A stretch of 64,000 nucleotides of DNA, taken from NCBI GenBank assembly GCA_030765065.1, contig CM060984.1, positions 84,717,988 through 84,781,987 on the forward strand, read 5' to 3'. The DNA comes from Deroplatys truncata. Lineage: Eukaryota; Arthropoda; Insecta; Mantodea; Mantidae. How positions within the stretch are numbered: the stretch's first letter is position 1; every line of letters begins with the position of its first letter. The position numbers were made by a program, and so were the translations under genes. Of this stretch, positions 17,366 through 60,513 are shown piece after piece. The notes beneath the pieces were generated by a model. It did not search any database, was not told the origin of the DNA, and saw nothing but the letters and a program-made list of their open reading frames with translations.

Positions 17366-17404
17366 TACTCTGCATGCCTTTTTGTTTGTTTTTGAATAAA
17401 AGTT

Positions 17405-17650
17405 CTAACCTGTATTTTTTTTCAATGTTAACTGATGCGTTCCGGGTTCGAATCCTGGTGAAGTTCTAGAAGCGATGTTCTCAGCCGTTTTGTTGTCCCA
17501 CGTAGGTAGACTAGAAGTTCGCGTTGTAATTTTGTTCTGCTGTGCCCCTTTCCTCTGAAGATTCTTCGTCTGTTCGTTGTTTCCTAGTCCTCCGTTCGTG
17601 TCGTTCTTCCCTTCGAGCTCCACGTTATGGCGCCAGTTTGCGGCGCTCAC
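17405..17650 (-). CDS. Small leader ORF downstream of the 5' LTR, overlapping the PBS
   Basis: 81-aa frame starting within the last bases of the 5' LTR (MSAANWRHNVE) and covering the primer binding site. It ends with SPGFEPGTHQLT, which is what an antisense tRNA T-arm/B-box (plus-strand GGGTTCGAATCC at about 17449) encodes. Probably not a genuine protein; it may be an untranslated leader carrying a tRNA-like fragment. Confidence 0.25.
   Translation of the reverse strand: MSAANWRHNVELEGKNDTNGGLGNNEQTKNLQRKGAQQNKITTRTSSLPTWDNKTAENIASRTSPGFEPGTHQLTLKKNTG
17618..17635 (-). promoter_or_regulatory. Primer binding site of the LTR element
   Basis: Three bases after the 5' LTR end, the minus strand reads TGGCGCCATAACGTGG. 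TGG is the expected start of a site complementary to a tRNA 3' CCA end. The particular tRNA cannot be named from this alone. Confidence 0.6.
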
Positions 17651-18777: not shown

Positions 18778-18781
18778 AAAC

Positions 18782-36654: not shown

Positions 36655-39600
36655 AATACTCAAGCACCTAGGAACCGAGATCGATGCGATAACTCCGAGT
36701 AATTATGATAAACTTGAAGGAAGGTACATGGATACTCTAGTACCCAGGAACCCAGATCGATGCGATAACTCCGAGTAATTATGATAAACTTGAAGGAAGG
36801 TACATGAATACTCTAGTACCCAGGAACCGAGATCGATGCGATAACTCCGAGTAATTATGATAAACTTGAAGGAAGGTACATGGATTCTCTAGTACCCAGG
36901 AACCCAGATCGATGCAATAACTCCGAGTAATTATGATAAACTTGAAGGAAGGTACATGAATACTCTAGTACCCAGGAACCCAGATCGATGCGATAACTCC
37001 GAGTAATTATGATAAACTTGAAGGAAGGTACATGGATACTCTAGTACCCAGGAACCGAGATCGATGCGATATCTCCGAGTAATTATCATAAACTTGAGGG
37101 AAGGTACATGAATCAGATACTCTAGTACACAGGAACCTGGATGGATGCGATAACCCCGAGTAATTATGATAACCTTGAAGGAAGGTACATGAATCAGATA
37201 CTCTAGTACCCTGGCACCTGGATCGATGCGATAACTCCGAGTAATTATGATAAACTTGAAGGAAGGTACATGAATACTCTAGTACCCAGGAACCGAGATC
37301 GATGCGATAACTCCGAGTAATTATGATAAACTTGAAGGAAGGTACATGGATACTCTAGTACCCAGGAACCGAGATCGATGCGATAACTCCGAGTAATTAT
37401 GATAAACTTGAAGGAAGGTACATGAATCAGATACTCTAGTACCCTGGAACCTGGATCGATGCGATAACTCCGAGTAATTATGATAAACTTGAAGGAAGGT
37501 ACATGAATCAGATACTCTAGTACCCTGGAACCTGGATCGATGCGATAACTCCGAGTAATTATGATAAACTTGAAAGAAGGTACATGAATCAGATACTCTA
37601 GTACCCTGGAACCTGGATCCATGCGATAACTCCGAGTAATTATGATACACTTGAAGGAAGGTACATGAATACTCTAGTACCCAGGAACCGAGATCGATGC
37701 GATAACTCCGAGTAATTATGATAAACTTGAAGGAAGGTACACGGATACTCTAATACCCAGGAACCGAGATCGATGCGATAACTCCGAGTAATTATGATAA
37801 AAACTTGAAGGAAGGTACATGAATCAGATACTCTAGTACTCTGGAACCTGGATCGATGCGATAACTCCGAGTAATTATGATAAACTTGAAGGAAGGTACA
37901 TGAATCAGATACTCTAGTACCCTGGAACCTGGATCGATGCGATAACTCCGAGTAATTATGATAAACTTGAAGGAAGGTACATGAATACTCTAGTACCCAG
38001 GAACCGAGATCGATGCGATAACTCCGACTAATTATGATAAACTTGAAGGAAGGTACATGGATACTCTAATACCCAGGAACCGAGATCGATGCGATAACTC
38101 CGAGTAATTATGATAAACTTGAAGCAAGGTACATGAATACTCTAGTACCCAGGAACCTGGATCGATGCGATAACTCCGAGTAATTATGATAAACTTGAAG
38201 GAAGGTACATGAATACTCTAGTACCCAGGAACCGAGATCGATGCGATAACTCCGACTAATTATGATAAACTTGAAGGAAGGTACATGGATACTCTAATAC
38301 CCAGGAACCGAGATCGATGCGATAACTCCGAGTAATTATGATAAACTTGAAGGAAGGTACATGGATACTCTAGTACCCAGGAACCTAGATCGATGCGATA
38401 ACTCCGAGTAATTATGATAAACTTGAAGGAAGGTACATGAATCAAATACTCTAGTACCCAGGAACCTGGATCGATGCGATAACTCCGAGTAATTATGATA
38501 AACTTGAAGGAAGGTACATGGATACTCTAGTACCCAGGAACCTGGATCGATGCGATAACTCCGAGTAATTATGATAAACTTGAAGGAAGGTACATGGATA
38601 CTCTAGTACCCAGGAACCTGGATCGATGCGATAACCCCGAGTAATTATGATAAACTTGAAGGAAGGTACATGAATCAGATACTCTAGTACCCAGGAACCT
38701 GGATCGATGCGATAACTCCGAGTAATTATGATAAACTTGAGGGAAGGTACATGAATCAGATACTCTAGTACCCAGGAACCTGGATCGATGCGATAACTCC
38801 GAGTAATTATGATAAACTTGAAGGAAGGTACATGAATCAGATACTCTAGTACCCTGGAACCTGGATCGATGCGATAACTCTGAGTAATTATGATAAACTT
38901 GAAGGAAGGTACATGAATACTCTAGTACCCAGGAACCGAGATCGATGCGATAACTCCGAGTAATTATGATAAACTTGAAGGAAGGTACATGGATACTCTA
39001 GTACCCAGGAACCGAGATCGATACGATAACTCCGAGTAATTATGATAAACTTGAAGGAAGGTACATGGATACTCTAGTACCCAGGAACCTGGATCGATGC
39101 GATAACTCCGAGTAATTATGATAAACTTGAAGGAAGGTACATGGATACTCTAGTACCCAGGAACCGAGATCGATACGATAACTCCGAGTAATTATGATAA
39201 ACTTGAAGGAAGGTACATGGATACTCTAGTACCCAGGAACCTGGATCGATGCGATAACTCCGAGTAATTATGATATACTTGAAGGAAGGTACATGGATAC
39301 TCTAGTACCCAGGAACCTGGATCGATGCGATAACTCCGAGTAATTATGATAAACTTGAAGGAAGGTACATGGATACTCTAGTACCCAGGAACCTGGATCG
39401 ATACGATAACTCCGAGTAATTATGATAAACTTGAAGGAAGGTACATGGATACTCTAGTACCCAGGAACCTGGATCGATGCGATAACTCCGAGTAATTATG
39501 ATAAACTTGAAGGAAGGTACATGGATACTCTAGTACCCAGGAACCTGGATCGATGCGATAACTCCGAGTAATTATGATAAACTTGAAGGAAGGTACATGG

Positions 39601-39912
39601 ATACTCTAGTACCCAGGAACCTGGATCGATGCGATAACTCCGAGTAATTATGATAAACTTGAAGGAAGGTACATGGATACTCTAGTACCCAGGAACCTGG
39701 ATCGATGCGATAACTCCGAGTAATTATGATAAACTTGAAGGAAGGTACATGGATACTCTAGTACCCAGGAACCTGGATCGATACGATAACTCCGAGTAAT
39801 TATGATAAACTTGAAGGAAGGTACATGGATACTCTAGTACCCAGGAACCTGGATCGATACGATAACTCCGAGTAATTGTGATAAACTTGAAGCAAGGTAC
39901 ATGAATCAGATA
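36655..39912. repeat. Satellite array, 76/81-bp monomers, about 42 copies
   Basis: The core of each monomer is GATCGATGCGATAACTCCGA, followed by GTAATTATGATAAACTTGAA and GGAAGGTACATG, then ACTCTAGTACCCAGGAACC. Two length classes: 76 bp (GGATACTC or GAATACTC) and 81 bp (GAATCAGATACTC, 5 bp longer). Further diagnostic variants are CCGAG versus CCTGG and CCCAGG versus CCCTGG. The 81-bp class is interspersed between about 37100 and 38850. From about 39060 to 39890 monomers are nearly uniform 76-bp CCTGG types. Long frames on the minus strand arise because 81 is divisible by three; they are not genes. Confidence 0.95.
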
Positions 39913-44640: not shown

Positions 44641-44646
44641 AACAAG
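44641..44646. other. Left target-site duplication of the Polinton
   Basis: AACAAG, identical to 59884-59889. A 6-bp duplication is characteristic of Polinton integration by a retroviral-type integrase. Confidence 0.93.
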
Positions 44647-45423
44647 AGTAGGGGTATATTTTGCGAGCCAGCCTATTTAATATGCAGGAATGTGCAATTA
44701 ATATGCTAATTAGGCCCCCTCCTCCACCTGCCACGACCCCTGGTCATAAGTTTTGCGAAGTATAATGGAAAGGTTGACAGGTATGCAATTAAGGTTGTGC
44801 ATCACCTGTCAAAATGAACAATAGTGTAATAAATTATGCTCTGTAACAAAAGAGGAGACACTATTCTCCCCATTCCATTCCCCGCACACGTGTTCGTTAG
44901 GAAGGCTACACCTGTAGCAAATCCCTCCCCCAGCTGCATTCTATTCTCTCTCCAAACATGCGCACCTGGGCAATATAAGAAAGACCGTGCCTTTTCCCTG
45001 TCAAACTGAACAATGGTGTAATAAATTACGCTTTGTGACAAAAGAACCGACGCTATTCTCCCCATTCCATTTCCTGCACACGTGTTCTTTAGGAAGGCCA
45101 CACATGTAGCAACCCCCGCCCCCTGCCTTCCATTTTCTCTCCAAACACATGCAATATACATGCAAAGAGCCAATCTGGTGCAGCGATAATAACAGAACAG
45201 GTGGTGAACCGTGAATACCTGGGCGCAATAAATTTTCCTACTCGACAGAGAGGGTACAGCAGCACTAGACAATGGGTATTAAATCACACTTTGTTAAAGC
45301 ATCCGACATCCCGGCGCCATCTCAGTTCCCATGTTGCAAGCTTCATTACTTGAGGGAAACCTGCAGCATTGCTATTACACCTGGCATATCTTTTGTTTGA
45401 CGGTAAAAAAGACAGCCGCGGTT
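44647..45423 (+). repeat. Left terminal inverted repeat of the Polinton, with internal duplication
   Basis: Matches 59285-59883 in reverse complement from AGTAGGGGTATAT to GACAGCCGCGGTT. It is 178 bp longer than the right one because a block beginning CTGTCAAA (44806) is repeated 192 bp later (44998, CTGTCAAACTGAACAATGG). The repeat copies have diverged from each other. Short open frames on the minus strand in this region are shadows. Confidence 0.93.
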
Positions 45424-45960
45424 CTATCCCTCCCCCTTATATTCATCAGTAGCAGATTCTCGCACAAATAAAATCTCTCTTCGCACCCGGCACGAAGACC
45501 CACGGACATTCCCGAACATATACATGCTCAGTGTATTCTAAAAACTTGGTCTAAACAGCCGAACCTTCACGAAAACCTACGGACATCTCCGAACACAGAT
45601 ATACACGATCCTAACATCTCTAACACTTCCTCCAAGCACACGAACCTGTACGACGATCTACGGGCATCACCGAACATAGTTACACATGTTCAACTCTGTT
45701 TTTTCGCATATTGTTCTCTTTCACTGCACTTACACACACATGTTAGCATTGGAAATGATTGTCTTTACAGAAGTCAAAACTCTTTGTTTCATTTCCCTGT
45801 AACCTAGCAAAATGTAATTCTTTTCAGGCTACCACATTCACATGATTTTCATCCCCACGCATTTTTATAGCTCGTGTAAACACATTATGGAGGTACTCTC
45901 TGAGAGGGAGATAGTCAGAGAGAGAGAGAAGGGGGAACTGAATCAAGTAAGGATAGAAGT
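45424..45960. repeat. Subterminal iterated repeats inside the left Polinton end
   Basis: Degenerate units of about 85 bp containing CGAACCTTCACGAAAACC or related sequence plus GGACATCTCCGAACA, around 45485, 45565 and 45640. Related units occur at 46870-47030 (ACGAATACCTACGAGTATAC, CCCGAACACAAA). Their reverse complement appears at 57795-57890 near the other end. Confidence 0.6.
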
Positions 45961-45971
45961 GCTGAGAGCCT

Positions 45972-46080
45972 CTGCGCATGCGCAGCAGGCAATAATTCCA
46001 TTGCGTGCAATAATCACATGATGTGTAAACATAACCCACCATGACATTGTACCTGGGGGCTTTAGATCTCTATATAAACA
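45972..46080 (+). promoter_or_regulatory. Candidate promoter: 12-bp palindrome and TATA box
   Basis: TGCGCATGCGCA at 45972-45983 is a perfect palindrome matching the NRF-1/ewg consensus. TATATAAACA at 46071-46080 is a good TATA box 90 bp downstream. It could drive plus-strand transcription of the left part of the Polinton (frames at 46106 and 47171). Inference from motifs only. Confidence 0.4.
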
Positions 46081-46105
46081 GCTAACGACGCATGCTAGAA
46101 CCATT

Positions 46106-46339
46106 GTGAGCTTATTAACTTTACATTCAAATTTTAAAGAACTTCAAAAATATCAACGCGAGGTGTTTTTTAATTTAAGAAGAGGTGTGAGTCATCGATT
46201 TCTACACAAACAAACACACACATACATAGCATTCAACAACACGAAACAATGCAAGATGAGTGAGTTTTTAAATAAGTATACAAATCAGTGTTGGCTTTTT
46301 ACGATTCATTTAATGTTGTTTAAACGATGCAGTGCATGA
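46106..46339 (+). CDS. Hypothetical 77-aa frame downstream of the TATA box
   Basis: MSLLTLHSNFKELQKYQRE start about 30 bp after the TATA box. No recognised family or motif. It could be chance; kept only because of its position after a promoter-like sequence. Confidence 0.25.
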   Translation: MSLLTLHSNFKELQKYQREVFFNLRRGVSHRFLHKQTHTYIAFNNTKQCKMSEFLNKYTNQCWLFTIHLMLFKRCSA

Positions 46340-46394
46340 AAGACGAATCGTTGAAAGAGTATCATATTTTAATGGCATGGATTTCCCGGCGCCC

Positions 46395-46850
46395 TCTTCT
46401 TCCATTCACATTCACACGATTTACTCTACTCATTCTTTATTTCTCTACACATTCACACGATTTTCTCTACTCATTCTTTATTTCTCTACACATTCTTCTT
46501 CCGCGAACATTCAACGATCTTCTATCCTCTATGTTTCATCATCGCAGTGATTTCTACACACGCTCTTCTTCTATTAACATTCATACGATTTTCTCTACAC
46601 CTTCTTCCATTAACATTAATACCATTTTCTCTACTCATTCTTTGTTTCTCTACACATTCTTCTTTCATTCACATTCACATGATTTTCTCTACGCTCTCAT
46701 TGTTTTACCATCACGTGGATTTATACACCCATTCTTCTTCCATTCACATTCACACGATTCTCTCTACCTGCTCCTTATTTCACCATCACAGGAATTTCTA
46801 CACACTCGTCTTCCATTTCCCATCACTCAGATTTCACCACCTACATGATT
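46395..46850. repeat. Degenerate 60-bp-class tandem repeats in the Polinton
   Basis: Units built on CATTCACACGATTTTCTCTA, CTCATTCTTTATTTCTCTAC and ACACATTCTTCTTCCATT recur about seven times. Apparent Ser/His/Phe-rich frames across them on the plus strand are by-products. Confidence 0.7.
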
Positions 46851-47170
46851 GTCACAATCTACCGCTTCTATCAAGCAACCGAACCTCTACGAATACCTAC
46901 GAGTATACCCGAACACAAAGATGCATAAACATACTTACAACCTCTGCTTTGTTACAAAGCTAGCACTTCTATCAAGCACCCAAAAGTACATGAAGACCTA
47001 TGGATATTCCCGAACACAAACATGCATAAACATACTTACAAAAATTGTATCACACACTTTAGTTCTAATATAAATAAATTCATAACTTGTCCTTTCACCT
47101 GATAATGCATTGAAAATAATAATTCATTATCAATGTCTGTTAGAGAATGTTTAGCAGACAGACTTAACAT

Positions 47171-47415
47171 ATGGCTGAGGAGCACAGTTTCCTACCGGCT
47201 CGGCGAATTCAAGATCTCGAAATAGGTCTTAAATGTGAGATAAAGGCTTAAAGAGAGTTCAAACAAGATGCGGTACCAGGATAGTATCTTCGCTGGAGGA
47301 TTGCCAAGTGTTCTTAACTGGACGTTATAATTCGTTAACCGACGAAGAGCTTGCAGAAATGCCTGGAAAAATATATTTGATATATAAGGGCATGGAGAGA
47401 TGGGAAATTTAAGAC
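47171..47415 (+). pseudogene. Small Polinton-type protein of unknown function, frameshifted
   Basis: From an ATG at 47171 (MAEEHSFLPARRI) the frame shifts near 47240 and then reads KRVQTRCGTRIVSSLEDCQ and VFLTGRYNSLTDEEL, ending PGKIYLIYKG. Small proteins with this layout (a TR.G.RIV strand, a VFLP.RY block and a terminal Y...YKG) recur near insect Polinton-like genes as I remember them; their function is not established and a nucleic-acid-binding role is only a guess. No other frame overlaps convincingly. Confidence 0.45.
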
Positions 47416-48303
47416 ATGTAAATTGTCTTTAGTACTCGCAGGGAAGCTATGTAGGAATGTCAAACTTAAGTATTCAATGTTTTCCTATTTTACTATGAAA
47501 TAGAATTCATAAATAAAACAGCTGACTCATTTTTGTTTATTACATATAAACATACAAAAGATACATACTATAGAATTTGTAAATAAAATTCATGAAATCA
47601 CAATGTCACGTGTTTTGAATTCACATTGAAATAGCGCCTGATATCCGAATGTTCATACAAACATACAATTGCTTTCAGGCTACCTACACTTACAAAAGCA
47701 TGTTTTCTAAGATTTTTATTGGGCAATGTTTCAGACGCTGCAATAAGGGGAAGAAGACAACAGTTTTGCAAAGGAGGCTGACGCTCTTTGACGATAGAAT
47801 AACCAACATTGACACCCCCAAGAAACATGCCGGTAACAAGCGAGTGTCGGGACATCTCGAGAAGGCTCAACGTTCAGATTAGGGTTCTTCTACGATTTTC
47901 CAAAGCTTATAGTGAAAAACACAGACAAATTTGTATACGTGACAATGCAAGACTTGGAGATAATTCGAGAGAGTCTCCCTATATGCAAAACATTCCTCCA
48001 ATCGAGAAAGTGTCCGCGAGTGGAATATTGTGAAAATATTGTTTTCTCTTATAATGTCATTGCTTATATGGAAGACGCCAAAATATGATTTTGAACACTA
48101 ATTTAAATGACTGTGAAATACTTTTAAATAGTGATGAAATGTTCACCATAAAAAGAATTGAATCTTTTATACATTACCATTTAGGTAACTTATCTGTTGC
48201 AAGTGTAACGCAGTATGCTGGAACGAGGAGTTGGAGGAGGAAAGTGTTTGAATTGCATGATAAAAAATAATAAAAAAGAATGAAGGTATGTTTTTACATC
48301 ATG
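47416..48303. other. Polinton interior, no recognised gene
   Basis: Plus-strand frames at 47649-47882, 47809-48033 and 48085-48270 show no recognised motif. In active relatives integrase and helper genes occur in comparable intervals, but I see no D,D35E signature here. Confidence 0.4.
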
Positions 48304-48309
48304 TTTTAT
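48304..48309 (-). terminator. Poly(A) signal after the capsid gene
   Basis: AATAAA on the minus strand, 34 bp beyond the capsid stop codon at 48343. Confidence 0.5.
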
Positions 48310-48342
48310 TCATTAAAAAATCCTTACATTACAATGATTGGT

Positions 48343-49549
48343 TTAAAATATAAGCTGCATCACATGAGTCAGAGGCTTGTATGTAAATACTTTATCATGA
48401 ATTATTAAACAATACAAAGAGGTCTGTAGAGGGATATTTGCACCAGCTTGAATTTCTATTCTGATGTTGACAGCACTATTTACAACTTCCTCTAGTTGAT
48501 GCGAGCAATCTATAACAAATATAAGAGTAAAATTAAGAAAATCTTTTCTCTTCAATAAAGGATAATTCTCTTTTACATAATAAGAGTTTTGAAACTTTGA
48601 GTACATATCATACAATAATGCATATCTCGAGTTTCCAAAGTCCAAATTCATGTTATGATAGGGATAACATTTGCTATTAAGATAAAGTCTCAAATTAGTT
48701 ATGTTACAGTGATCAAAAAGGGAACAGTCTTTAGATGCATTTCTCGAGCTTAAAGTCTGAGCACCCAAAATGACAAATCTCGGCTTCTCCATTTTTGATG
48801 TGGTGGCGACATTCCAGGTGAATGATTTAGTTTGCGGCACAGCAGGCTGAGTATGCAGATCCATTGTCCTAAATGCGAGATACAGCGCCTTGTCCGACTT
48901 GACAATCTTGAGGATTTCAACCTTTTCTGCATCAGAAAGTCGAATCACAGGCATTCTCCACTCGATTCGTACAAGCTGAACAGTGGCATTCTCTTCACCC
49001 TGAGGCGCTATAATAAGTTTTTAGACTCCTTGGATCGAATCAGCACTAACTCAAACTTGCTATTCAGCACGAGTTCCTTGTGGTCGTCCCAGAAGCATCG
49101 ATAGCGGTACTATAGCATTGAAAGCTCCATTTGCTGCATGCACAATGTCCATGTCTTTTCCAGGATAGCACCGTCCAGCATTCATCAGACGATCAGATTC
49201 CATTGGATTGAGAGCAGCATAGTTGCGTAAAGTTTATGCGATCCCGGGGTTTCTGGTTCGATCAATAGTTGAGCCGTTCATATCCAGTCGAATCTCCTCA
49301 AACATGAATGCATTAGCGTTATTGGTAAGCTTTACAGTAGTAGCTGCTCCAATAGGTTTAGTAATACTCCCCTCGATGTATAGGTAACTTCGATTAGGTA
49401 ATGTATATAAATCCTCAGCTTGACATGAGATTCTAATCTCGTCCTTAGAGTCCAGAGCTGATGTATTATACGGCAAAAACACATGTTCCTTCTTCTTTAG
49501 TGATCTTGTCGGGGAATCTCGGTGTCTCGGCACCATTGCAGATGTCCAT
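48343..49549 (-). pseudogene. Polinton major capsid protein (double jelly-roll type), frameshifted
   Basis: Starts at 49549 (MDICNGAETPRF), two bases after the stop of the 49-aa gene. Recognisable blocks, in order: FLPYNTSALDSKDEIRI, DLYTLPNRSYLYIEG, FEEIRLDMNGSTIDRTRNPG, NPMESDRLMNAG, DMDIVHAANGAFNAIVPLSM, RIEWRMPVIRLSD, LGAQTLSSRN, CNITNLRLYLNSKCYPYHN, LDFGNSRYALLYDMY and a C-terminus with SLYCLIIHDKVF. These match the conserved capsid protein of arthropod Polintons, which builds the icosahedral shell. Frameshifts lie near 49490 and at several points between 49233 and 48954. The last 203 codons are uninterrupted. Overall span of about 400 codons fits the family. Confidence 0.9.
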
Positions 49550-49551
49550 AA

Positions 49552-49701
49552 TTATAGGATTCTGAATCCCAATGCCGCGAGGAACTGATGATTGCGCGAT
49601 GTTAACCCGCTGGGTGTCAAAGGCAGAGTATGACGCGGGCGTCGAATTACTCCATTATTATATCCTCGATGTCGCCGACTTCTTCTAAAATCTATTGCCA
49701 T
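49552..49701 (-). CDS. 49-aa basic protein between penton and capsid genes
   Basis: Intact frame, ATG at 49701 and stop at 49552-49554. It starts inside the last codons of the penton gene (stop 49685-49687, different frame) and ends two bases before the capsid ATG. Residues: MAIDFRRSRRHRGYNNG, a second basic patch VIRRPRHT, and a hydrophobic end LTSRNHQFLAALGFRIL. Similar very short Arg-rich proteins with an LT..N..FL..LG end occur at this place in other insect Polintons as I recall; a virion core or membrane-active role is conceivable but unproven. It is too short for most annotation pipelines. It is the only gene of the cassette without damage. Confidence 0.7.
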   Translation of the reverse strand: MAIDFRRSRRHRGYNNGVIRRPRHTLPLTPSGLTSRNHQFLAALGFRIL

Positions 49702-50372
49702 TGCAACGGATGTGAAGTCTTATGCTTATATCTTCGTTTCTAAAGTCAATGAATATTACCGTTCTGGTCCACTACACGAAGACTAATTTGCTCGATGACT
49801 TTGGTGTTTATGATTGGAAGCTAAATTGGATTTGACGGCTCTTGAGAAATATGATATCCAGGCGGAACAGATGGGAAAAGTGCTTTTACCGTCGATGATA
49901 GAGCCTGTTGCAATCCTGCACTCGATTCGTATGATGCTCACCTTAAATATATTCACCAGGAAAATGGATTCAGCCAGCTGATTAGCTGGAATAATTTTGT
50001 CACTGAAAACCAAGAGCGATCCTATAGAACGATCATTGGAAAAATCAACGGTGAAAGGACATTTAATTTCAGCCTTCATTGTGTTATTATTGGCTAATAA
50101 AGAAGACATCCTCATCCACCCCTAGCTTATCTGATATATCCATTAATATCAGCAATCTCGTAAGTTCCATCGGGTATATCAATGATCTTAATTTCATCAT
50201 TGTGAATGTAATGAAATTGATTATAACTCTAATCAACATTGGGAATGGAATAGAGGGTTTCTAAATTTAATAGAGCAATCTCATAATGTCCCTTCGGATC
50301 TATCTGAAGAGGGGGATTCAGGTATATAGTAAGAACAGATTCGTTTCCGTGGACAGCAATAGTGTAACTCAT
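49685..50372 (-). pseudogene. Polinton minor capsid (penton-like) protein, frameshifted
   Basis: Starts at 50372 (MSYTIAVHGNESVLTIYL) with the ATG overlapping the protease stop (ATGA). Blocks: GHYEIALLNLETLYSIPNV, DIPDGTYEIADI, then after a break EIKCPFTVDFSNDRSIGSLL, FLVNIFKVSIIRIECRIATG, and a C-terminus with LRVVDQNGN, DFRNEDISIRLHI. These match the single-jelly-roll penton protein encoded next to the capsid gene in Polintons; it occupies capsid vertices. A stop lies near 50232, frameshifts near 50120 and 49760, and the internal region between 49900 and 49790 is shortened. The gene overlaps the 49-aa gene by 17 bases. Confidence 0.85.
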
Positions 50373-50830
50373 TGCGATATAAATTGCAAGCACAAGTGCC
50401 CGCAGATGACTGAGCTGAAACTCTGAAACCTCTTAGTGTTATACAGCACCTTAACACCTCTGAGGTACCTTTCTATCTCTGTTGGTGGCTTCAAGCTTCT
50501 AAAGCTATCGAAATAAAATGACACGTTGCCATCCTTCTTTATAGCAACACAATGAGTGCCTTCATTCTCTGAAGTATTGAGATTGACAATAATTCTCTCT
50601 CTCTGTAACGAGGTCTTGAAGGTGGCTAATCGATCATGTATACACCTCTAAAATGAGGAATCTTTAAACGTTGGGCATACAGGTCGAGGTCTAAGTTACT
50701 CAATGCTTTTTCCGGGACAATTGTAGCCCCCTGCCGGAGTTTTTTTAATTCCCTTTCTTGCTCTGCGTCCTCTGCGTTTCGGTATTCCTCGCCTTATTCT
50801 TCTTCACTCGAAGGCCTCTCCCTCTTACTT
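50369..50830 (-). pseudogene. Polinton cysteine protease (adenain/Ulp1-like), frameshifted
   Basis: The minus strand reads ALSNLDLDLYAQRLKIPHF, RGVYMID, then after a frame break near 50635 RIIVNLNTSENEGTHCVAI, VSFYFDSFRSL and VLYNTKRFQSFSSVICGHL followed by CL. The His in GTH, acidic residue in YFDSF, Gln in RFQ and Cys in GHLCL match the catalytic set of adenovirus-type maturation proteases. In Polintons this enzyme is thought to process capsid proteins. The stop codon at 50369-50371 overlaps the penton ATG. The N-terminal boundary is uncertain. Confidence 0.8.
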
Positions 50831-50838
50831 CAATTTAT

Positions 50839-51025
50839 CTGTTATGTCTCATCATTTCGACCAGTTGTTTATCTGCAGCCTTTTTTCTTATTTACGGCTG
50901 TAGCAGTTTGTGATGCACCTTCAGCGACAGCACCTAGAGCTGTAATAATTGATAAGAGAGGTAGAAATCCTCCCTGTTTCTTCTATTTGGATCCAGCACC
51001 AACAGACACCTTTCCCTCAATTTCT
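50839..51025 (-). repeat. Tandem duplicate of the 3' end of the phospholipase-like gene
   Basis: Repeats 51026-51210 at a 187-bp offset (CTGTTATGTCTCATCATTTC versus CTGTTATGCCTCATCATTTC; GAGAGGTAGAAATCCTCC in both). The copy encodes a degraded version of the Gly/Ala-rich tail and carries its own substitutions, so it is a dead partial duplication. Confidence 0.85.
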
Positions 51026-51038
51026 CTGTTATGCCTCA

Positions 51039-51527
51039 TCATTTCGGTTGTTTATTTGCAGCCTCTTTCTTATTTACAGCTGCAGCAATTTGTACTGCAC
51101 CTTCAGCGGCGGCACCTAGGGCTGCAATAATTGGTATGAGAGGTAGAAATCCTCCTCGTTTCTTCTTCTTGAATCCAGCATCAACAGCTACCTTTCCCTT
51201 CATAATTGCTGTTACTAGTCGCGCTGACAACTTTTCACCTAATGTAGCATCAGATGATTGCACTCTTTTCCACGTCTTTTCAGCCAAGATTTTATCTGCA
51301 ATATTTCTTGAACCAGAGTCCTTATGCTGGGCGTAGGCAATGTCCTGAAGTTTGCACGCTTCGTCTAATTGGTTGATTCCCGGGTCTCATCTCTTTAATT
51401 TTTTTTCTAGCTTTATCCCAGGTCCGTAGTATCTGTAACCAGGTAAATGTACTTCAAGTGGCAAATGGTTAATGAGAGTGTTAATTAAACCGGAACCTCT
51501 TGCGATCTTAACCTCGTTAGCTCTCAT
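51039..51527 (-). pseudogene. Parvovirus-type phospholipase A2-like protein of the Polinton, one stop
   Basis: ATG at 51527, reading MRANEVKIARGSGL. Then LPGYRYYGPG, the calcium-binding loop type seen in parvovirus VP1 phospholipases, and DEACKLQDIAYAQHKDS, the helix that normally holds the catalytic HD pair. Here the His is Gln. A basic segment GFKKKKRGGFLPLIPIIAAL follows, with an Ala-rich hydrophobic end resembling membrane-active minor capsid proteins. One in-frame TGA lies near codon 47; otherwise 162 codons run uninterrupted. Such domains help non-enveloped virions leave endosomes, so a virion role in active relatives is plausible. This copy cannot make an active enzyme. Confidence 0.75.
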
Positions 51528-51636
51528 GGTATACTAATTTATTTTATTGGTGCATAGTTCTTTTATACTCTGTCATTGCTTACGAGCATTAGCATATATA
51601 CATTACGCATTATTTATATTATTTTTAGCTGTTACG
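51528..51636. promoter_or_regulatory. Short divergent intergenic region
   Basis: 109 bp separate the minus-strand phospholipase-like gene and the plus-strand ATPase fragment. It contains ATATATACATTACG and TATTTATATTATTTTT, AT-rich stretches that could act as a bidirectional promoter. No experimental support. Confidence 0.35.
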
Positions 51637-51760
51637 ATGGAGCTGGTGAAGCAAGATTGTTCGCTACCTATTCAGGTGCTACACTTTGAAAGCGACTTTA
51701 TGCGCAATCGTCACGGAAAGCTGTTTTTTCTGACAATGTTAGAGCACTAATTATAGGTGA
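51637..51760 (+). pseudogene. Polinton packaging ATPase, N-terminal fragment
   Basis: From an ATG at 51637, MELVKQDCSLPIQVLHFESD leads to FMRNRHGKL; after a frame break at about 51728, SDNVRALIIG remains. In the family the next residues are the Walker A loop; here the homology ends exactly there and the sequence runs into an unrelated GCT-rich repeat. The FtsK/HerA-type ATPase packages DNA into capsids; only its first 40 residues persist. Confidence 0.6.
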
Positions 51761-51924
51761 GGAGGTATTTAAAGCAAATAGAGTAGTATCACAGGTGTTC
51801 GTGATAATTTCAATCAGCTATTTGTATTACGGTTATTTAATGTAATTTCAGCTGATTCGGGTAGTATCCAGTGTATTCGCACCATTTTAAAAAGTAATTC
51901 ATTTGGTTTCAAAGATGTGGCTAC

Positions 51925-52930
51925 TGAATCTGCAACGGCTGGGTTATCTGTTGCTGTTGTAGCGTAGCCTGTTGTTACTGCTACAACTATTGTAGCTGTA
52001 CAGATGTTGCTATAGTTGCTGTATCTGCTACTACATCTGCCGTTTTTGCTGCTGCTGTTGTGATGCTTGCTGTTGCTGAGGCTGCTAAATCTACAGCTGC
52101 TGGATTAGCTGCTGCTGTGTACCCGGTTGTTGTTGCTGCTATTGGTGTAGTGTATGTTGCTACAGCTGCAGGATCTGTTACAGTTATTGTTGTAGCTTCT
52201 GTTGCTGCAGCTGCTGTATCTGCTACTGCAGTTGTCGCATTTGCTGCTGTTATTGCTGTGATGGTTTCTGCTGCTAGGACTGCTGAATCTACAGCTGCTG
52301 TGTGGCCGGTTGTTTTTTTGCTGGTGTTGTTGCTACAGCTGCAGGTTCTGTTACAGCTATTGTTGTAGCTACTGTTGCTGCAGCAGTTTTATCTGCTACT
52401 GCGGCTGTCGTATTTGCTGCTGTTATTGCTGTGATGGTTGCTGCTGCTGAGGTGGGTGAATCTACGGCTGTTAGATTAGCTGATGCTGTTGCTACAGCTG
52501 CTGTGTAGCCTGTTGTTGCTGCTGTAGCTATTGTTGCAGCGGATTTTGCTACAGCTGCAGGATCTGTTGCAGCTATTGTTGTAGCTATTATTGCTGCAGC
52601 TATCTGCTACGCTGCTGTTGTATTTGCCTCTGACGTTGTTGCTACAGCTATTGTTGTGGCTGTGCCTGATGTTGCTGTAGCTGCTAGATCTACTGCTGCT
52701 ATTGTTGTAGCTGCTGTTGCTATAGTTGCTGTATCTGCTACTATAGCTGTCGTATTTGCTTCTGCTGTTGTTGTGATGCTTGCTGTTGCTGAGGCTGCTA
52801 AATCTACAGCTGCCGGATTAGCTGTTGCTGTTTCTAAGCCGTTGTGTAAGCGGTAGTTGCTGCTGTAGCGACTGTTGCAGTGGATGTTGCCGCAGCTGTC
52901 GGATATGTTGTTGCAACTCGTGCTTGAACC
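51925..52930. repeat. GCT/GTT-periodic low-complexity repeat
   Basis: About 1 kb of three-base periodic sequence (GCTGCTGTTGCTACAGCTGC and variants). A longer unit recurs: GTGATGCTTGCTGTTGCTGA at 52058 and 52772, with variants near 52258 and 52431. Ala/Val-rich frames on the plus strand and Ala/Thr-rich ones on the minus strand come from the periodicity. It occupies the place of the rest of the ATPase gene. Confidence 0.85.
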
Positions 52931-53077
52931 AATCACGAACGATTATTGCTGAAAATTTATCGAAATGAAACCATTACACCCGATTCACAATTGTTGAACT
53001 CTTTTTATGCCCGCAGAAAGGTTCGAGTTTCTGAGTTTCTATAATCTTCTCGAACATTTTAAAACGAAAAACTATGT

Positions 53078-53225
53078 TTCGTTCACACGGCTTTCTCTAT
53101 CCACTATAGTTTATTGTTATAGATATTGCAAACTATACTCACGAAAACTTACTCTTCTACCTACTTCATGTTAATCGAAATAAACGTTTGAAGAATTAGT
53201 TTCATTACACATTCTGCTTAGGTAC
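53078..53225 (-). mobile_element. Helentron-like end fragment within the Polinton
   Basis: TTCACACGGCTTTCTCTATC, CACTATAGTTTATTG, CTACCTACTTCATGTTAATC and GAATTAGTTTCATTACACAT match the 5' part of the older copy at 7409. It lies between the repeat and the polymerase gene, so the element entered the Polinton after its arrival or was carried by it. Confidence 0.65.
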
Positions 53226-53930
53226 AATGGGAATACAGAAAGCAGACTAGATAGTTTCTTTTTCAGTTTCGATCCTGTCTGTTACCGAATCCGAGGTTCG
53301 AGAATGTGATAGCAATATCGCTCTTTGCTCTAGGATGATAATGGAAAAACTCACTGTATGCAATGTCAGACCTCTAGTGTAGCAAAACTCGTTGATATAT
53401 CTGTGAGAATATCGATGTGTTGCTATATCAATCGCTGATACCAAGTACTTAGTATACCCCTAAGGATAATAATGCTGGGGTATATGTGCTTGTAGTTTTT
53501 TATTAAAACGTATTAATGAATTGTTTTTCTCTGTGTTCATACAAATACTATTACATCTTTTACAATGTAGAGATAAATAAAGAGTGAAGGTATACAGAAG
53601 TAGCATACACTAGCGCATCCACATGGTTGAGGAGATATAACGTTTTAGTCAGCTTTATTGTTTTATATGCTTACATTTTTGTTCAAGTGTAGCAGATTTA
53701 TCAGTTAAATCATTGCTTCCTTAGACAGGGATTGTAAGGGTAGACGTCTTTCCCCTTTATCCAGACTTGAGGATAACAGTATGATTTGCCCCTAATGGCA
53801 GCGTTATCGCCTCCTCTTCCATCTTCTCCTTTCTCCACCAGTTGTCTGCTACGTGTATACACAGCACATGAGTAAACTTCAATTTCTTAAGATTGTAGAC
53901 TCGCGGAGAAAATCTTCATCTTCTGGTTAC
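53226..53930. other. Polinton interior, no recognised gene
   Basis: A minus-strand open stretch of about 56 codons at 53717-53884 (VYSCAVYTRSRQLVEKG) overlaps the presumed 3' end of the polymerase in another frame. Not recognised. Confidence 0.3.
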
Positions 53931-56900
53931 ATTGTCTAAAGCACTGTTCGTAATGCTGTAATTTCCATATGCATAGGTAGTTATTCCATCCTGTGCAATA
54001 ACTCTTTTATCATCAAAGGGATTCAATGTAATTTTATTCACTTGTACTGTGGTAACAGCGTGTTCTCGTGATAGGATTATATTTTTGGGCGTTCTGGTGA
54101 TTTCACAGGTTTCAAGACAGACTGTATAGCTGTCAAATGTGATTCCCTGCTTAATAGCACTACGTTTTATACCCTTGATCTTTTTTTATCATCGATCCTT
54201 GAATATCTAATGCATACATCTTAGGTCGTAGTCCAACAAAGTGCAGGATGATTTTGCTATTAGCCTCATCTTTAAATTTTCCCAGCACATTTTTATTCTG
54301 AGTAGAGTGGCATATATGCTTGACAGGGTAATCAGTTGTATCCAGATGCTCAAGAAAACGTAGCTTGTCCTGGTAGACATCTTCAGTGGTTACACGGTGA
54401 ATGAATGAGCTTCAGGTTTTCAGCTCCGTAACATGGCAAAAACACATCGTAATGATAATGATACATTAATGTCTTGGAGATGCCCAACACACCCATGCCA
54501 ATGTATATAGACTTGTTGAATAGAATCTGACGAGAGGCCATATGTACAGCAGCTAGAATATAGTTCTATCGATAAACGTAGGCTTGGCGATCAACTTCTC
54601 CAGTCTTCTCATTTGTTACTAGTCGTATATTCATACGTTTACGCAGGTACTCCATAGTTTTTCCGAACATTGCATTGTTAAAGACCTTGTAGAGATCCTT
54701 CTTGAAATCATTTGCAGCTTGTTGTCGTAGCCTGTTCTTAAATTCCACATAAGGTTTTAACCACTGAGACTGTCGGAATTGTAGCACACGATGAACTTTT
54801 GTTAGCCGTAACCCATGATTAAGAGCTTGCTTCAAAGTAATGTAATGTACGACATACTTCTCTCGAGGTCCAAGATGAGGTATCAGTTTCTAGACGATTC
54901 CTCTGGCTTCATACACTCGGGCAGGAAAGATGGTTCGTTGTGTAGATCGCGACGTTCTGCAGGATACTCGATGTCAACTTCTAATATGCACCCACGATGA
55001 TCATCATCTTGTAGTGGTTCTAAGTTAATTTCTTCAGGTGACACCCACTCAAATTCGCCATAAGGGAGGGTGTGGCACAATGCCCAGCCATATTGGTTAT
55101 TGGTGCCCTCATACGTAATAAATTGGGTTGGTATCGACGGATCATACTTATCCATATAAGTGCTATTAGCCTCTGCATACCGATGGGAAGCTTGGCATAA
55201 ACCTCCTCTTATACCTGATTCCACTATGAGTAGGTGATCATAATCTCGTAACAGTTCCAAGTGAATTCCAATATACAGTAACATAGCATCCCATGTAAGC
55301 CCTGGAGAGGTGAAATAATGAGCGGGGTCGACTTTATGTATTTTGAGGGTTTGATCTCTAAATGTCTCAAACACATCAGCTAGAAGAATATCTGAGGTTA
55401 AGTAGAGATCGATGTACTCGCCCAGGTTTCTCACATTAAACAGCTCCCATACATTTCTACCATGATTGTAGTCAGTATCAGTAATTTATTCTTCATGAAA
55501 TCTATTGTAGAAGAAGTCCTTAGGAGGCAGGCAGGCCTAGTTCAAAACATCCCATGACGTGACGTAATCACAGGGAAATACTCCTTTACAACACATCAAC
55601 TTCAATTTGTCTTCTCCGAAGTACTTTAGTGTTTTAAGGATATGAGGTTAGAGTTTTTACCTACCTATCCAAGCTTGTACTCAGGAAACGAAAGTTATCC
55701 ACAAATTGAAGCTTTATGCCTCCTACATACTTGGTGAATGAGATATAGCTTTCTTCAGAGCTAGGAATTACCTCCACCCGCTCACTTGTACAACCCAACT
55801 CCTTGAAAATGAAATGGGAGTCATACTCAATGAGGTTGTACAAGACAGGAATATATTTAGGTGTTTTGAAGGCTAAATTGCATTCATTATGTAGACTTCC
55901 ACGATATTCACCGCTGATGTGATCATGGTCGCGTACTTGTAGTATTTTTCAGTAAAGGGTTTTGTACATAAGTAGCATACTGTAGAAGAGTCGAAATCCT
56001 TCTGCTCTTGATCTGTAAGTTTCAGAGGCTTGGTAGATTTTTACATGTTGTCATTCTTCATTGCAAGGTACGACAGGTATTCCATAAAATTCTGAGCAGC
56101 ATTAACACCACGATATACGTAGGGTTGCTTAGGAAGAACAGTTTGAATGTGTTTAACACTAGATGATGGCTTAACGTAAACACAGAAGCTCATAGGTATA
56201 TGCTCTTGATAAGGAAGTCTCAGGATTGGGTATACACGTACGACATGTTGCGAGAATGCTTTCAAAGTCTGCGTAGATGACATAAGGTACTTTCAGCATC
56301 CTTTCAACATTTGTAAACTGTACAACGGATTTCTCCTTGGTAGGCATAACTACCCTTGCAACACATGTTGAATACAGATGTTCTTGTATGATGCTGCATG
56401 TTCTTGTAATTCTTCCAACCCACTTCGACCATATCGATCATCAAAATGTGTAAAACAGCGCTTGCAGGTATAAACACGTCCTTTGTGCTTAGTTTTCTGA
56501 CCTCGAACGAGCTTCTAAAGATTCTTGATATATACATAGTGATGTTTTCCACTACTGTCACTCAAAAGTAGTAAGTCACGGTGTTCAGGTAGTTCAATGT
56601 CAGCAACCTTTATTGGATACACTTCATGCTTCTCATCCAGCCCGAAAACGTTGATAGAAATCTTGTTAAGCTTCTCAAATTTAGGTATTTGAGAAGGTGG
56701 AATAGGATAACAAACACAGCTGAAGTCGTACTTATCTTGAAGTTGCTCGTATTTGCTTCACACGATGTGTATTCTTCCCTATGAATTTAGCTAATACAGA
56801 ATGCATGAAATATTTCTCGTTGGTAAAGTTCTGGATATTTATGCAGCCTTCTTTAGCCCCTACAGATGGTGGTAGTGGTATGCATCTACTTCCTCATAAC

Positions 56901-57536
56901 GGATTGTGTTTATTGATACGAAGTCAAACTCCTTCCACAACAAGCAGGGCCCAGTTGCTACCCTTAAGCTGCGACTCCTCCATTGATCAATTTCTTGTAT
57001 TTCGCTTCCAGCGTTGCGTCCAGATCCGTTTATGGAAACACAGGCTGATGGCGTGTTTTAAATGTTCTGACACAGGTTTCTACTGGTTACAAATCTGCAC
57101 TAGCCAGCAGATTAATTTTCACACTCTTGTGAATGCTAAGCTCTTTATGCATAGCTTGGATTATCCGTTGTTTTGACTCATGTAAGTACATATTCAGGTC
57201 CTTAGATGAATCGCATCGTATAAAATACTATTTCAATCGTCCTTCGAACGATGTCTCGCATTCTTTGATATCACAGTTCTCCATTGTTGATAACTTATTT
57301 TTAGTAGGCTCCAATCTGCTTTTCTTCTGAGGACGGCTTATTTCACATACATCTTCGTGACGCTGACCCTTATAACCATCATTGAAGGTTACATTGCAAT
57401 GCTTGCATTTGAAGAGCTTCTTACAGCTTATCTGATGCCTTCTCTTGTCATAACCTCGGAGGAATTTCTTCCCGCACTTACTGCAAGAGTATCCTAATGC
57501 ACTACGTATTATATCCTTATATGCAGAGTTGTTCAT
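53931..57536 (-). pseudogene. Protein-primed DNA polymerase B of the Polinton, inactive
   Basis: About 1200 codons on the minus strand. N-terminus 57536-57228: two Cys/His fingers (CSKCGKKFLRGYDKRRHQISC-type at residues 18-38, CKHCNVTF...HEDVC following). Then a block with NKHNPL and IPLPPSVGAKEGCINIQNF, the exonuclease motif VPYVIYADFES (about 56290), YLTSDILLADVFETFRDQ and HYFTSPGLTWDAMLLYIG (55434-54883). The polymerase motif A region reads YEGTNNQYGWAL, where LDANNLYGWA is usual, so the catalytic Asp is gone. Motif B FNNAMFGKTME is present (about 54680). The DTDS motif expected after CYGAENLKL (about 54430) is deleted, and reading resumes at TEDVYQDKLRF. Late blocks VLGKFKDEA and NPFDDKR follow. 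Many frameshifts. Confidence 0.9.
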
Positions 57537-59284
57537 CCTTATTCCTGAGGTAATAACGTATTAATCCTTCTTCAAGAAACGTAGACCTCTTCACCTTGAT
57601 AAAAATTTAGAAAGCTGATTATTCTTCGAGAGAACACGATGTTAACACATCTAGACGCATTAGCGCAATAAAGACTAGTGACTGAAACTATCCTAATTAT
57701 AAAGGTAACACGGACCTTTCTAGAACAATCATATACTGAATTTTTAACAATAAAACGGTGATTCATTGCGATATCTCTTATATTGAACTACACGTTTACA
57801 CGGGCGTTCGGGTATGTTTGCAGGGTTTCGTGAAGGTTCGGGTTCTCAGAGCAAGGTTTTTCCAATGCTAGCGTGTGTGTATGTGTGTGCGCGTGTAAGT
57901 GCACTGGTGTATGTGTATATATGCATGTGAGTATATGTATGTGTATTGGATCAGTGTATGCGCTCGTCTATATATTAATGCTTCGATGTATGCTTCGAAG
58001 AAAGAGCTAGAAAGAAAAAAGAGAAGAGAAACAAAAAGAACAAAATAAAGATTCGAATATAGGCATCGGGATGCCTAAGTATACAGCAGGGTTTAATATA
58101 AAATAATTATATTTGTTAAATACATTTTAATCTGGCCGCGCATACTCTCATAGTTTAATATTTATTAAGCATTAGAGTTTCGCAGGCTAAGATTTGAACT
58201 CTGGGTATATAAGAATAGCCTGCATTAAACATCGTAATAATATATAAAAATTAACATGATTTACTTTATTCGTCTATGTTCCTAAATTTTAATAGTTATT
58301 AAGCACTAATGTCTCACTACACTAAGGCTCGAGTTACAGTTAATATGTATAAATTGTAAGGGTGTCTGTATGATTGTATTATGTTTGTAAAATGTTTAAG
58401 TGTAAGTTCTGTGAAACCGAAAAACACACACACGTACATAGATTCGTTAAATGTTAGGGAGTGAACCGATTTTTTTCAGACGGGGATTCTGATAGAATGC
58501 CAACTATCTTTAGAAATATAGTAACCATTCCATCAGGGGGCATATTGAAGCAGTATGTTTTGAGTAGTTAAATAAAATTATAATTATAGGGAGAATAAGT
58601 ATCGATAACAGTAAGGATAGTGTTAAATAAAATTGGAAAGCGAATGTTACTGTAAGTGGAAATAAGGGTTGAGAGAGACAGTGGCATCAGCGGCCGGAAA
58701 CGGGTGGTTTTTACCTCTATTGTTAAGTGTCCCGTTAGGTTGCTGGAACGCAGAGGTGTAGAAAAGGGTCAATGTTCGCCAAAATACAGATAGCCTTAGG
58801 CCTCCAATGAAAGGAGCTGAAATCAGGCGGTAGTGGAATGGGGAGATATAGAAGGTTTTAAAGAGAGAAACGGGAGGTTTTAGAATACACACTTAGCCGT
58901 TGTAGCTCCTTGGAGATGTTTGATAGGAAAATGTGTAGGAAAGTTTAGAATACACACTTGGCCGTGGTAGTTTGTCAGATGTTTGTCAGAAAAGTGTCGG
59001 CGAATAGGCGATGATATGAAGTGTAACAAATAGGAAATGCGCGTGTGTGCGTGTGTCGAAGAAATAGCAGGGATCATATGCAAATAAGGTGACGGTAAAT
59101 AAACGAGCAGGAAAACAAACAGTCGTATTCAACCACTAACCCGAGATCCAGGATCTATGCAAAGAACCCTGAGCTAGTACCGAACCCGGGACCATTCCGA
59201 CAAATCCTGTACCGTAAAATAGTCACATACTACCGCAAATTGCCGCCCTAACGTGGGTGCCACAATCAACAAGAAGAAATACCA
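57537..59284. other. Polinton right arm, non-coding as far as seen
   Basis: 57795-57900 contains GTTCGGGTATGTTTGCAGGG, TTTCGTGAAGGTTCGGG and a TG-rich stretch with CCAATGCTAGCGTGTGTG, reverse complements of left subterminal sequences. 58880-58930 and 58943-58995 are a tandem pair (TTTAGAATACACACTTGGCC). No integrase or other coding homology recognised. Confidence 0.45.
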
Positions 59285-59883
59285 AACCGCGGCTGTCTTT
59301 GTTACCGTCAAACAAAAGACATGCTAGGTATAATAGGAATGCTGCAGGCCTCTCTCAGGTAATGAATCTTGCAACGTGGGGACTGAGATGGCGCAGGGAT
59401 GTCGTATGCTATAACAAAGTGTGATTTATTACCCATTGTCTAGCGTTGCTGTACCCTCTCTGTCGAGTAGGAAAATTTATTGCGCCCAGGTATTTACGGT
59501 TCACCACCTGTTCTTTTATTATCGCTGCCCCAGACTGGCTCTTTGATATATTGCATGTGTTTGGAGAGAAAATGGAAGACAAGGGGCGGGGTTGCTGCAT
59601 GTGTGGCCTTCCTAACGAACGCGTGTGCAGGAAATGGAATGGGGGGAATAGCGTCTCGTCTTTTGTTAAAGCATAATTTATTATACCATTGTTCATTTTG
59701 ACAGGTGATGGACAACCTTGATTGCATACCATTCTTTTCATCATACTTCAAAAAATTTCTGATCTCAGCTGCAACCAAAAAGGTACCAAGGGGCGTGGCA
59801 GGTGGACAGAGGAGGCCTAATTAGCGTATTAATTGCACATTCCTGCATATTAAGTGGGCTGGCTCGCACAATATACCCCTACT
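59285..59883 (-). repeat. Right terminal inverted repeat of the Polinton
   Basis: Reverse complement of the left terminal repeat without its 192-bp internal duplication. It ends ATATACCCCTACT. Open frames here are shadows. Confidence 0.93.
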
Positions 59884-59889
59884 AACAAG
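59884..59889. other. Right target-site duplication of the Polinton
   Basis: AACAAG, identical to 44641-44646. Confidence 0.93.
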
Positions 59890-60109: not shown

Positions 60110-60513
60110 GTCACTATGTGTTTTCCTGTTGTTAGAGCGTTTAGAAATGTTCAAAACAATCTAACAACTCGCCGACTGTGAACTCAATTAGTGATTCGTT
60201 TTTTGTATGCGAGAAATGTTACGCCAGCAAACACTCGTCACCAATTGTGTGAGGATTATGGGGAAACAATAATGAGTGAGAATGCTTGGACAACGCAGAG
60301 CCAAAAAAAGCTCAAGATTTCATCGCATCATGTGAGTGGGAACAATTCAACCACCCTCCATTGAGTTCGGATTTGGCACCAAACGATTTTCATCTGATTC
60401 TTCATCTGAAGAAATTCCTTGGTGGAAAACATTTCAACTATGATGTAAAACAGGAAGTGCAGGTTTGCTTTCATCACAGGTGGCATCATTATTTGACGAA
60501 GGCATATAGGTAA
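60110..60513 (+). pseudogene. Internally deleted mariner-like transposase
   Basis: About 60206-60280 reads ARNVTPANTHRQLCEDYGE and IMSENAW, the N-terminal helix-turn-helix region of mariner transposases (normally ending MSEGMVRKW). It then switches directly to DNAEPKKAQDFIASCEWE, HPPLSSDLAPNDFHL and LHLKKFLGG, the second and third catalytic motif region (HDNARPH and SPDLAPSDF types). About 180 residues of the middle, including the first catalytic Asp, are missing. A deletion derivative, possibly mobilised in trans. No terminal repeats identified. Confidence 0.7.

What the first reader, a model, noticed from the sequence alone, without database searches (positions are those of the whole stretch)
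44641..59889. Full-length Polinton fossil with perfect ends and target duplication but dead genes
AGT...ACT ends, long inverted repeats and a perfect AACAAG duplication bound 15.2 kb carrying a viral-type gene set. Such copies show whether the element was lost by mutation rather than by deletion. The terminal repeats and gene order would place it among adintovirus-like lineages.
Basis: partly seen in the sequence, partly recalled or inferred. Interest (0 to 1): 0.9.

Follow-up and report, generated by a model that had tools for sequence, protein, structure and literature searches.

The report
Broken Polinton mosaic with palindromic relatives
The finding is a real, decayed virus-like transposon (Polinton), but it lacks the gene needed to insert itself, and its close relatives in the same genome include mirror-image elements that carry only two copies of the DNA-copying gene and look freshly inserted.

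Summary
In detail: a 15.2-kb element (44647-59883) with AGT...ACT ends, terminal repeats that align end to end (520 of 575 gap-free columns identical) and a perfect AACAAG duplication. It carries broken capsid (MCP), penton, protease, PLA2-like and protein-primed polymerase (pPolB) genes. It is not full-length in gene content: no integrase was found, and the ATPase stops near residue 66 of 264, at the same place (within ~8 nt) as in three related copies. That loss is inherited; point decay came on top. The published adintovirus definition is not met.

The host genome (4.29 Gb, unnamed) holds young relatives. Lineage A has integrase, ATPase and capsid genes; terminal repeats are 99.7% identical in two of three copies read (95.1% over part of the third). 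Lineage B consists of pPolB palindromes: 54 inverted pPolB pairs among 150 scored hits, all in the same orientation, 33 of them 8.52-8.65 kb apart. One centre read is a 98% palindrome; two of two elements with both ends read have perfect 6-bp duplications.

Best reading: non-autonomous Polintons inserted by lineage A's integrase in trans (inferred). Palindromic pPolB-only Polintons were not met in my open-licence literature searches.

The parts
44641..44646 (+). target site duplication AACAAG, left
44647..45423 (+). left terminal inverted repeat, begins AGTAGGGG
   Evidence: aligned with the right TIR; multicopy in the own genome
44805..44958 (+). first copy of a ~150-nt unit duplicated inside the left TIR
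44997..45147 (+). second copy of that unit; the right TIR has one unit, a join of copy 1 (upstream) and copy 2 (downstream)
47239..47412 (+). remnant of a small accessory ORF (...RYNSLTDEELAEMPGKIYLIYKGM...) seen as longer ORFs in related copies
   Evidence: L017, L018, L019; function unknown
47818..48264 (+). remnant of a 156-aa accessory ORF of lineage A
   Evidence: tblastn, two frames
48346..49555 (-). major capsid protein (double jelly roll), broken
   Evidence: PF21738; tblastn 83% to an open 408-aa MCP, 4 stops in frame; model and fold search of the 225-aa piece
49688..50432 (-). penton (minor capsid) protein remnant
   Evidence: tblastn to an open 255-aa frame of lineage A, 59% and 95%; the name penton is recalled from Polinton gene order
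50372..50803 (-). adenain-like cysteine protease remnant
   Evidence: tblastn 67% to an open 147-aa frame, 2 stops; the name rests on recalled motifs, no Pfam hit
50830..51199 (.). 182-nt tandem duplication in the 3' part of the PLA2-like gene
51147..51533 (-). PLA2-like / adenovirus pX-like protein remnant
   Evidence: PF08398 2.4e-05; tblastn 81%
51558..51758 (+). N-terminal stump of the packaging ATPase (to about residue 66 of 264)
   Evidence: tblastn 61%; the intact lineage A frame hits PF04665
51758..51763 (.). junction: lineage A homology ends at 51758; a repeat unit also found beside pPolB in a lineage B palindrome begins at 51763
51925..52910 (.). degenerate alanine-rich repeats where lineage A has coiled-coil and integrase genes
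53073..53227 (.). dispersed repeat also found at 7406-7562 and, in part, at 29153-29260
53949..57560 (-). pPolB remnant in several pieces, with a zinc-finger N-terminal part at 57228-57560
   Evidence: tblastn with L001 and with lineage A pPolB, ~41%; 82-84% to lineage B; C2H2 match E 0.024 below cut-off
57655..58301 (-). segment that in the C8 copy lies next to the TIR on both sides
   Evidence: L012 and L013
58302..59284 (.). 983-nt stretch without a counterpart in the C8 copy
59285..59883 (-). right terminal inverted repeat, ends ...CCCCTACT
59884..59889 (+). target site duplication AACAAG, right

Best explanation
The window holds an old, decayed, non-autonomous Polinton. It belongs to a family that combines a lineage-B-type pPolB with a lineage-A-type capsid arm (MCP, penton, protease, PLA2-like protein, N-terminal stump of the ATPase) and lacks integrase and most of the ATPase. 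Shown: TIRs, TSD, gene remnants, the junction at 51758-51763 shared with related copies, young A and B relatives in the same genome. Inferred: it was replicated by its own protein-primed polymerase and inserted by an integrase supplied in trans by an A-type element (B, A and window elements share AGTAG(G/T) ends and 6-bp duplications). Members of this INT-less group also exist as symmetric forms: old capsid-arm palindromes and young pPolB-only palindromes. I infer that these arose as snap-back copies during strand-displacement replication, in which a displaced strand is copied back on itself, so that one end replaces the other.
For: TIRs and TSD. No integrase by Pfam in 117 pieces nor by tblastn with the lineage A integrase in the window or in 19 pieces of related copies. 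A-homology ends at L062:842-850 in the window, C8, C16:352 and C16:535 copies. pPolB 82-84% to lineage B but ~41% to lineage A pPolB, while MCP is 83% to lineage A. Pairing: 54 neighbour pairs, 54 of 54 '-+'; 98.15% palindromic centre; TSDs GACTAC and AGTATG, 6/6 each, at the outer ends of two palindromes. Lineage A: 99 of 125 integrase rows have a listed MCP on the opposite strand within 12 kb. Of 150 B-type pPolB rows only the window's lies within 20 kb of a listed MCP, none of a listed integrase.
Against: Decay could hide an integrase: known pPolB pieces gave only weak or no Pfam hits, so the Pfam scan is a weak test. A 64-nt piece of the B palindrome (L077:2533-2596) matches inside the ATPase stump of related copies, so B may descend from the same truncated family and the 51758/51763 join may be less simple than A-meets-B. 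The B-like unit at the junction is 70-78% over 112-156 nt. Trans-integration and snap-back origin are not tested. Lists are capped at 125-150 scored rows. One young A copy (C4) has TIR parts only 95.1% identical. One TIR pair (C16:500) shows no TSD and K 0.206.
Confidence: 0.72

Rival explanations
1. An ordinary, once complete Polinton that lost integrase and ATPase by decay and deletion in this copy alone.
For: The copy is clearly decayed, and the space between ATPase stump and pPolB is filled by degenerate repeats and a dispersed repeat.
Against: The ATPase homology stops at the same place in three other copies, and the C8 copy is collinear with the window across the junction. pPolB and capsid arm have different nearest relatives.
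Confidence: 0.12
2. The palindromic pPolB pairs are artefacts: assembly fold-backs or two neighbouring elements inserted head to head.
For: Inverted duplications are a known error type (recalled). Only one centre and two pairs of ends were read here. Two TIR loci (L037, L038) share identical outer flanks, so the assembly may hold some duplications.
Against: Arms differ by about 1.9% in the centre read, with ~100 nt of unpaired sequence in the middle. Outer flanks are host DNA with 6/6 target duplications in 2 of 2 elements with both ends read. 33 of 54 pairs have spacing 8.52-8.65 kb at separate loci.
Confidence: 0.08
3. The window-type family is autonomous and uses an integrase too diverged to recognise, or another recombinase.
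For: Its copies, short- and long-TIR alike, carry proper TSDs; some ORFs have no known relatives.
Against: C8, C16:352 and C16:535 interiors were read in pieces and gave no match to the lineage A integrase or, at DNA level (L051, L053, L054), to the stretch that carries it.
Confidence: 0.08

Closest known systems
Polinton/Maverick elements (PMC4028283, passages seen; PMC8097293, outline and first part of Results read)
   Same: 6-bp TSD, AGT...ACT ends, long TIRs, pPolB, MCP, penton, protease, size about 15 kb.
   Different: No integrase and a stump of the ATPase; in the vertebrate set of PMC8097293, 134 intact elements have the whole set. Palindromic relatives are not described in the parts of these papers that I saw.
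Adintoviruses (PMC11071296, section 16 and passages read)
   Same: Adenovirus-like capsid genes with an adinto/Polinton-like pPolB; mixed pairings of capsid and polymerase lineages are reported there as well. BFVD matches of the MCP model include a Drosophila-associated adintovirus capsid and a MELD virus protein.
   Different: The definition includes an rve integrase; not found in this element.
Hymenopteran MCP proteins (Osmia, Prorops, Trichogramma)
   Same: Nearest named MCP relatives, 39-44% identity, PF21738.
   Different: Distant; the surrounding elements were not seen.
Snap-back defective genomes of AAV (PMC8235507, search listing and start of abstract seen) and symmetric adenovirus 12 recombinants (recalled, no paper seen)
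   Same: Symmetric, gene-poor derivatives of linear DNA viruses that need a helper.
   Different: The B palindromes are fixed in the germ line with target duplications and keep an open polymerase frame on each arm.

Membership tests
Polinton/Maverick | terminal inverted repeats with AGT.../...ACT ends | tested here: met
   end motif compared with PMC8097293
Polinton/Maverick | 6-bp target site duplication | tested here: met
   AACAAG
[quoted passage not shown]
   broken
Polinton/Maverick | double jelly-roll major capsid protein | tested here: met
   PF21738; the model is of modest confidence (mean pLDDT 66) but double jelly-roll capsid and scaffold proteins lead the fold list
Polinton/Maverick | penton and adenain-like protease | tested here: met
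   tblastn to lineage A frames; the naming of those frames is recalled, not from a family hit
Polinton/Maverick | RVE integrase | tested here: not met
   no match in 117 pieces (Pfam) or by tblastn with the lineage A integrase; decay limits the test. Polinton-derived, non-autonomous is therefore the claim
Polinton/Maverick | complete FtsK/A32-like packaging ATPase | tested here: not met
   N-terminal stump only
Adintovirus | PolB with N-terminal OTU-like domain | not tested
   no domain test was run
Adintovirus | hexon recognisable by BLASTp among adintoviruses | tested here: inconclusive
   no adintovirus sequence was held for BLASTP; the fold search lists adintovirus and MELD virus proteins among many capsids
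Adintovirus | rve integrase with C-terminal chromodomain | tested here: not met
   lineage A has rve (PF00665 1.9e-10), chromodomain not reported by Pfam

The most novel reading that the evidence does not exclude
The genome hosts a split Polinton system: a complete lineage (A) and a group of helper-dependent relatives, among them pPolB-only palindromes (B) that copy themselves with their own polymerase and insert with A's integrase, behaving like germ-line defective-interfering genomes; the window element is a fossil of the INT-less mosaic family that links the two.
Probability: 0.45. Interest if true: 0.8.

Novelty: new variant of a known kind. Interest (0 to 1): 0.6.

Why it matters
Whether Polintons behave as viruses, as transposons or as both is a standing question. 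A genome with many young copies of a complete lineage beside many palindromic, polymerase-only copies with perfect target duplications makes helper dependence directly testable: the second kind should move only where the first does. It also suggests that strand-displacement replication of Polintons produces symmetric genomes, and that capsid and polymerase arms recombine within one host genome.

Tried and rejected
Viral contigs: single-piece scans with MCP and pPolB and an MCP alignment found no relative; a pPolB alignment found one 15-kb contig (L001) with a pPolB and PLA2-like gene but no help on the integrase. The penton piece gave no protein hits. PDB sequence search of MCP and protease pieces gave only chance-like hits; that of the pPolB alignment none. 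Weak Pfam hits below cut-off (DUF7128, zinc fingers and others) were not used, except that the C2H2 match agrees with the zinc-finger look of the pPolB N-terminus.

C16 enrichment as insertion targeting: rejected for now. Among window-type TIRs, 25 of 38 scored places other than the window's own two (20 of 31 loci, my hand count) lie on C16, which is 16.5% of the genome; for MCP it is 46 of 150, integrase 31 of 125, B-type pPolB 23 of 150. The young B group is not enriched, so retention of old copies on C16 is likelier than targeting. The lists are capped and ranked by similarity to the window copy, and the planned control with an unrelated repeat did not complete.

TSDs of related copies were read by eye: 6/6 in C16:535 (TATGGC), C9 (AATATG), C4 (CATATG) and the C5 and C1 palindromes; 5/6 in C16:352, C8, C5:116 and C16:163, with the element end chosen by hand; none in C16:500; not settled for C16:172, C16:110, C11 and C16:577. 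Dating in years was left out: K values only.
Full report
1. The observation. The window element runs from 44647 to 59883. Its ends read AGTAGGGG... and ...CCCCTACT and abut AACAAG on both sides. The TIRs, 777 and 599 nt, align from end to end; 520 of 575 gap-free columns agree, K2P 0.103. The left TIR has two ~150-nt units where the right has one; the two left units differ more (K 0.147) than left and right TIR do, and the right unit looks like copy 1 upstream and copy 2 downstream. TIRs elsewhere match the whole left TIR, so the right TIR probably lost one unit.

2. Genes. On the minus strand lie pPolB (53949-57560), PLA2-like (51147-51533), protease (50372-50803), penton (49688-50432) and MCP (48346-49555); on the plus strand an ATPase stump (51558-51758) and two accessory ORF remnants. 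MCP has 4 stops in the frame of the match, protease 2, PLA2-like 1, penton 9 in a stretch that changes frame; pPolB matches lie in three frames. The 225-aa MCP piece has relatives in Hymenoptera (5 of 7 hits carry a name, all hymenopteran); its model is of modest confidence (mean pLDDT 66), yet the viral and PDB lists are led by double jelly-roll capsid and scaffold proteins. pPolB has 864 hits, with corals, a brittle star and aphids among those named in the 120 rows listed.

3. What is missing. Pfam found neither integrase nor ATPase in 117 pieces of the unassigned parts, a weak test because proven pPolB pieces also scored poorly. The own genome gave a better one. Lineage A copies (L060-L071) carry an rve integrase (PF00665 1.9e-10), an A32-like ATPase (PF04665 1.7e-05), two coiled-coil-like ORFs, PLA2-like, protease, penton and a 408-aa MCP. 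Used as tblastn queries, the integrase and coiled-coil frames found nothing in the window or in 19 pieces of related copies, while the ATPase found only its N-terminal part: residues 1-66 in the window, 14-56 in C8, 9-69 in C16:352, 6-70 in C16:535. At DNA level the homology to the lineage A piece L062 runs to its base 842-850 in all four. The C8 copy is collinear with the window across this point.

4. A mosaic. The window capsid arm is 81-88% identical in DNA to a lineage A copy, from 47657 to 51758, and MCP is 83% in protein, but pPolB is only about 41%. The nearest pPolB frames, 82-84%, belong to another group, B. Just past 51758, the stretch 51763-51914 recurs as a repeat beside pPolB in a B element (70-78%). 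Against a simple two-parent join: a 64-nt piece of the B element matches inside the ATPase stump of related copies, so B may itself descend from the truncated family.

5. Lineage A is young. MCP: 150 scored of 10,976 first-look candidates, all E <= 3.1e-129; by my hand count 120 of 150 have an open frame of at least 386 aa and no stop. Integrase: 125 scored of 12,826, 95-100% identical; by hand count 106 of 125 without a stop. 99 of 125 integrase rows have a listed MCP within 12 kb on the opposite strand, nearly all at 5.7 or 6.0 kb. TIR identity is 99.7% in two copies (C9, C16:110) and 95.1% over 432 columns in a third (C4); TSDs AATATG (C9) and CATATG (C4) are perfect. First-look candidates are not confirmed copies. 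For comparison, PMC8097293 reports a mean of 22 and up to 287 Maverick loci in vertebrate genomes.

6. Lineage B is palindromic. Of 150 scored pPolB rows (15,448 candidates), 108 form 54 neighbour pairs, all '-' then '+', 33 of them 8,520-8,653 bases apart; 92 of 150 frames are at least 1,200 aa, and in 35 pairs both are. 42 rows are unpaired within this capped list. In the C5 element the centre is a 4.4-kb inverted repeat, 98.15% identical, with about 100 unpaired nt in the middle. Outward of pPolB come repeats and a terminal block, then host DNA; apart from pPolB no gene of lineage A was found in the stretches read (3 kb of the pPolB body were not read). Outer ends read AGTAGGATATATAGG, and the duplications are GACTAC (C5) and AGTATG (C1), 6 of 6 each; two further elements were tried, one end was found in C11 and none in C16:577. 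None of the B rows lies within 20 kb of a listed MCP or integrase, except the window's own row, 6.5 kb from its MCP.

7. Capsid palindromes. C16:352 and C16:535 have the accessory-MCP-penton arm at both ends (arms 83-92% and 85-97%), with the PLA2-like gene and ATPase stump towards one side of the middle; no pPolB match was found in their pieces. C16:535 has a perfect TSD (TATGGC), C16:352 a 5/6 one.

8. Modular ends. 19 of 38 other TIR ends of the window type carry an extra block outside the window's AGT end, in some of them (L025, L047) only its inner part; 19 do not. The block resembles the terminal block of the B element. In C16:352 it lies at both ends, so ends change in step, as copying of one end from the other would give (inference).

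9. Mechanism. Shown: structure, duplications, shared breakpoint, pairing. Inferred: the INT-less elements are replicated by their own polymerase and inserted by A's integrase; palindromes arise as snap-back products of strand displacement. AAV snap-back genomes (PMC8235507, start of abstract only) and symmetric adenovirus 12 recombinants (recalled) are the nearest parallels.

10. Novelty. Searches for palindromic or non-autonomous Polintons and for snap-back genomes listed no such element; I read titles and abstract starts only, in an open-licence library. Polinton bursts and mixed capsid/polymerase pairings are known (PMC6035795 and PMC11071296, passages), so the whole is a new variant of a known kind.

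11. Limits. The empty site, an unrelated-repeat control for C16 and read support were not available.

Noticed in passing
own genome C16 (707 Mb of 4.29 Gb): Old window-type TIR loci are concentrated on C16 (20 of 31 by hand count; binomial 2.8e-9), MCP rows less so (46 of 150), young B-type pPolB not at all (23 of 150). Suggests slower loss on that chromosome; identity of C16 unknown.
   Followed up: partly
window 13976-15116 and 17639-18779: Direct repeats of 1141 nt, 99.8% identical, flanking a 417-aa ORF with many short repeats (16151-17404, minus strand): looks like a young LTR-type element with little else inside.
   Followed up: no
window 36656-39903: Tandem array of a 76-nt unit, 42 copies, 94% matches.
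   Followed up: no
L037 (C16:160.12 Mb) and L038 (C6:88.84 Mb): Two TIR loci on different chromosomes share the same outer flank letters where printed: segmental duplication or assembly duplication.
   Followed up: no
window 58302-59284: 983 nt inside the right TIR have no counterpart in the C8 copy, where about 236 nt like window 45397-45632 stand instead.
   Followed up: no
window 60182-60513: Mariner-like transposase remnant just outside the element (HTH_48 E 0.0021, below cut-off).
   Followed up: no
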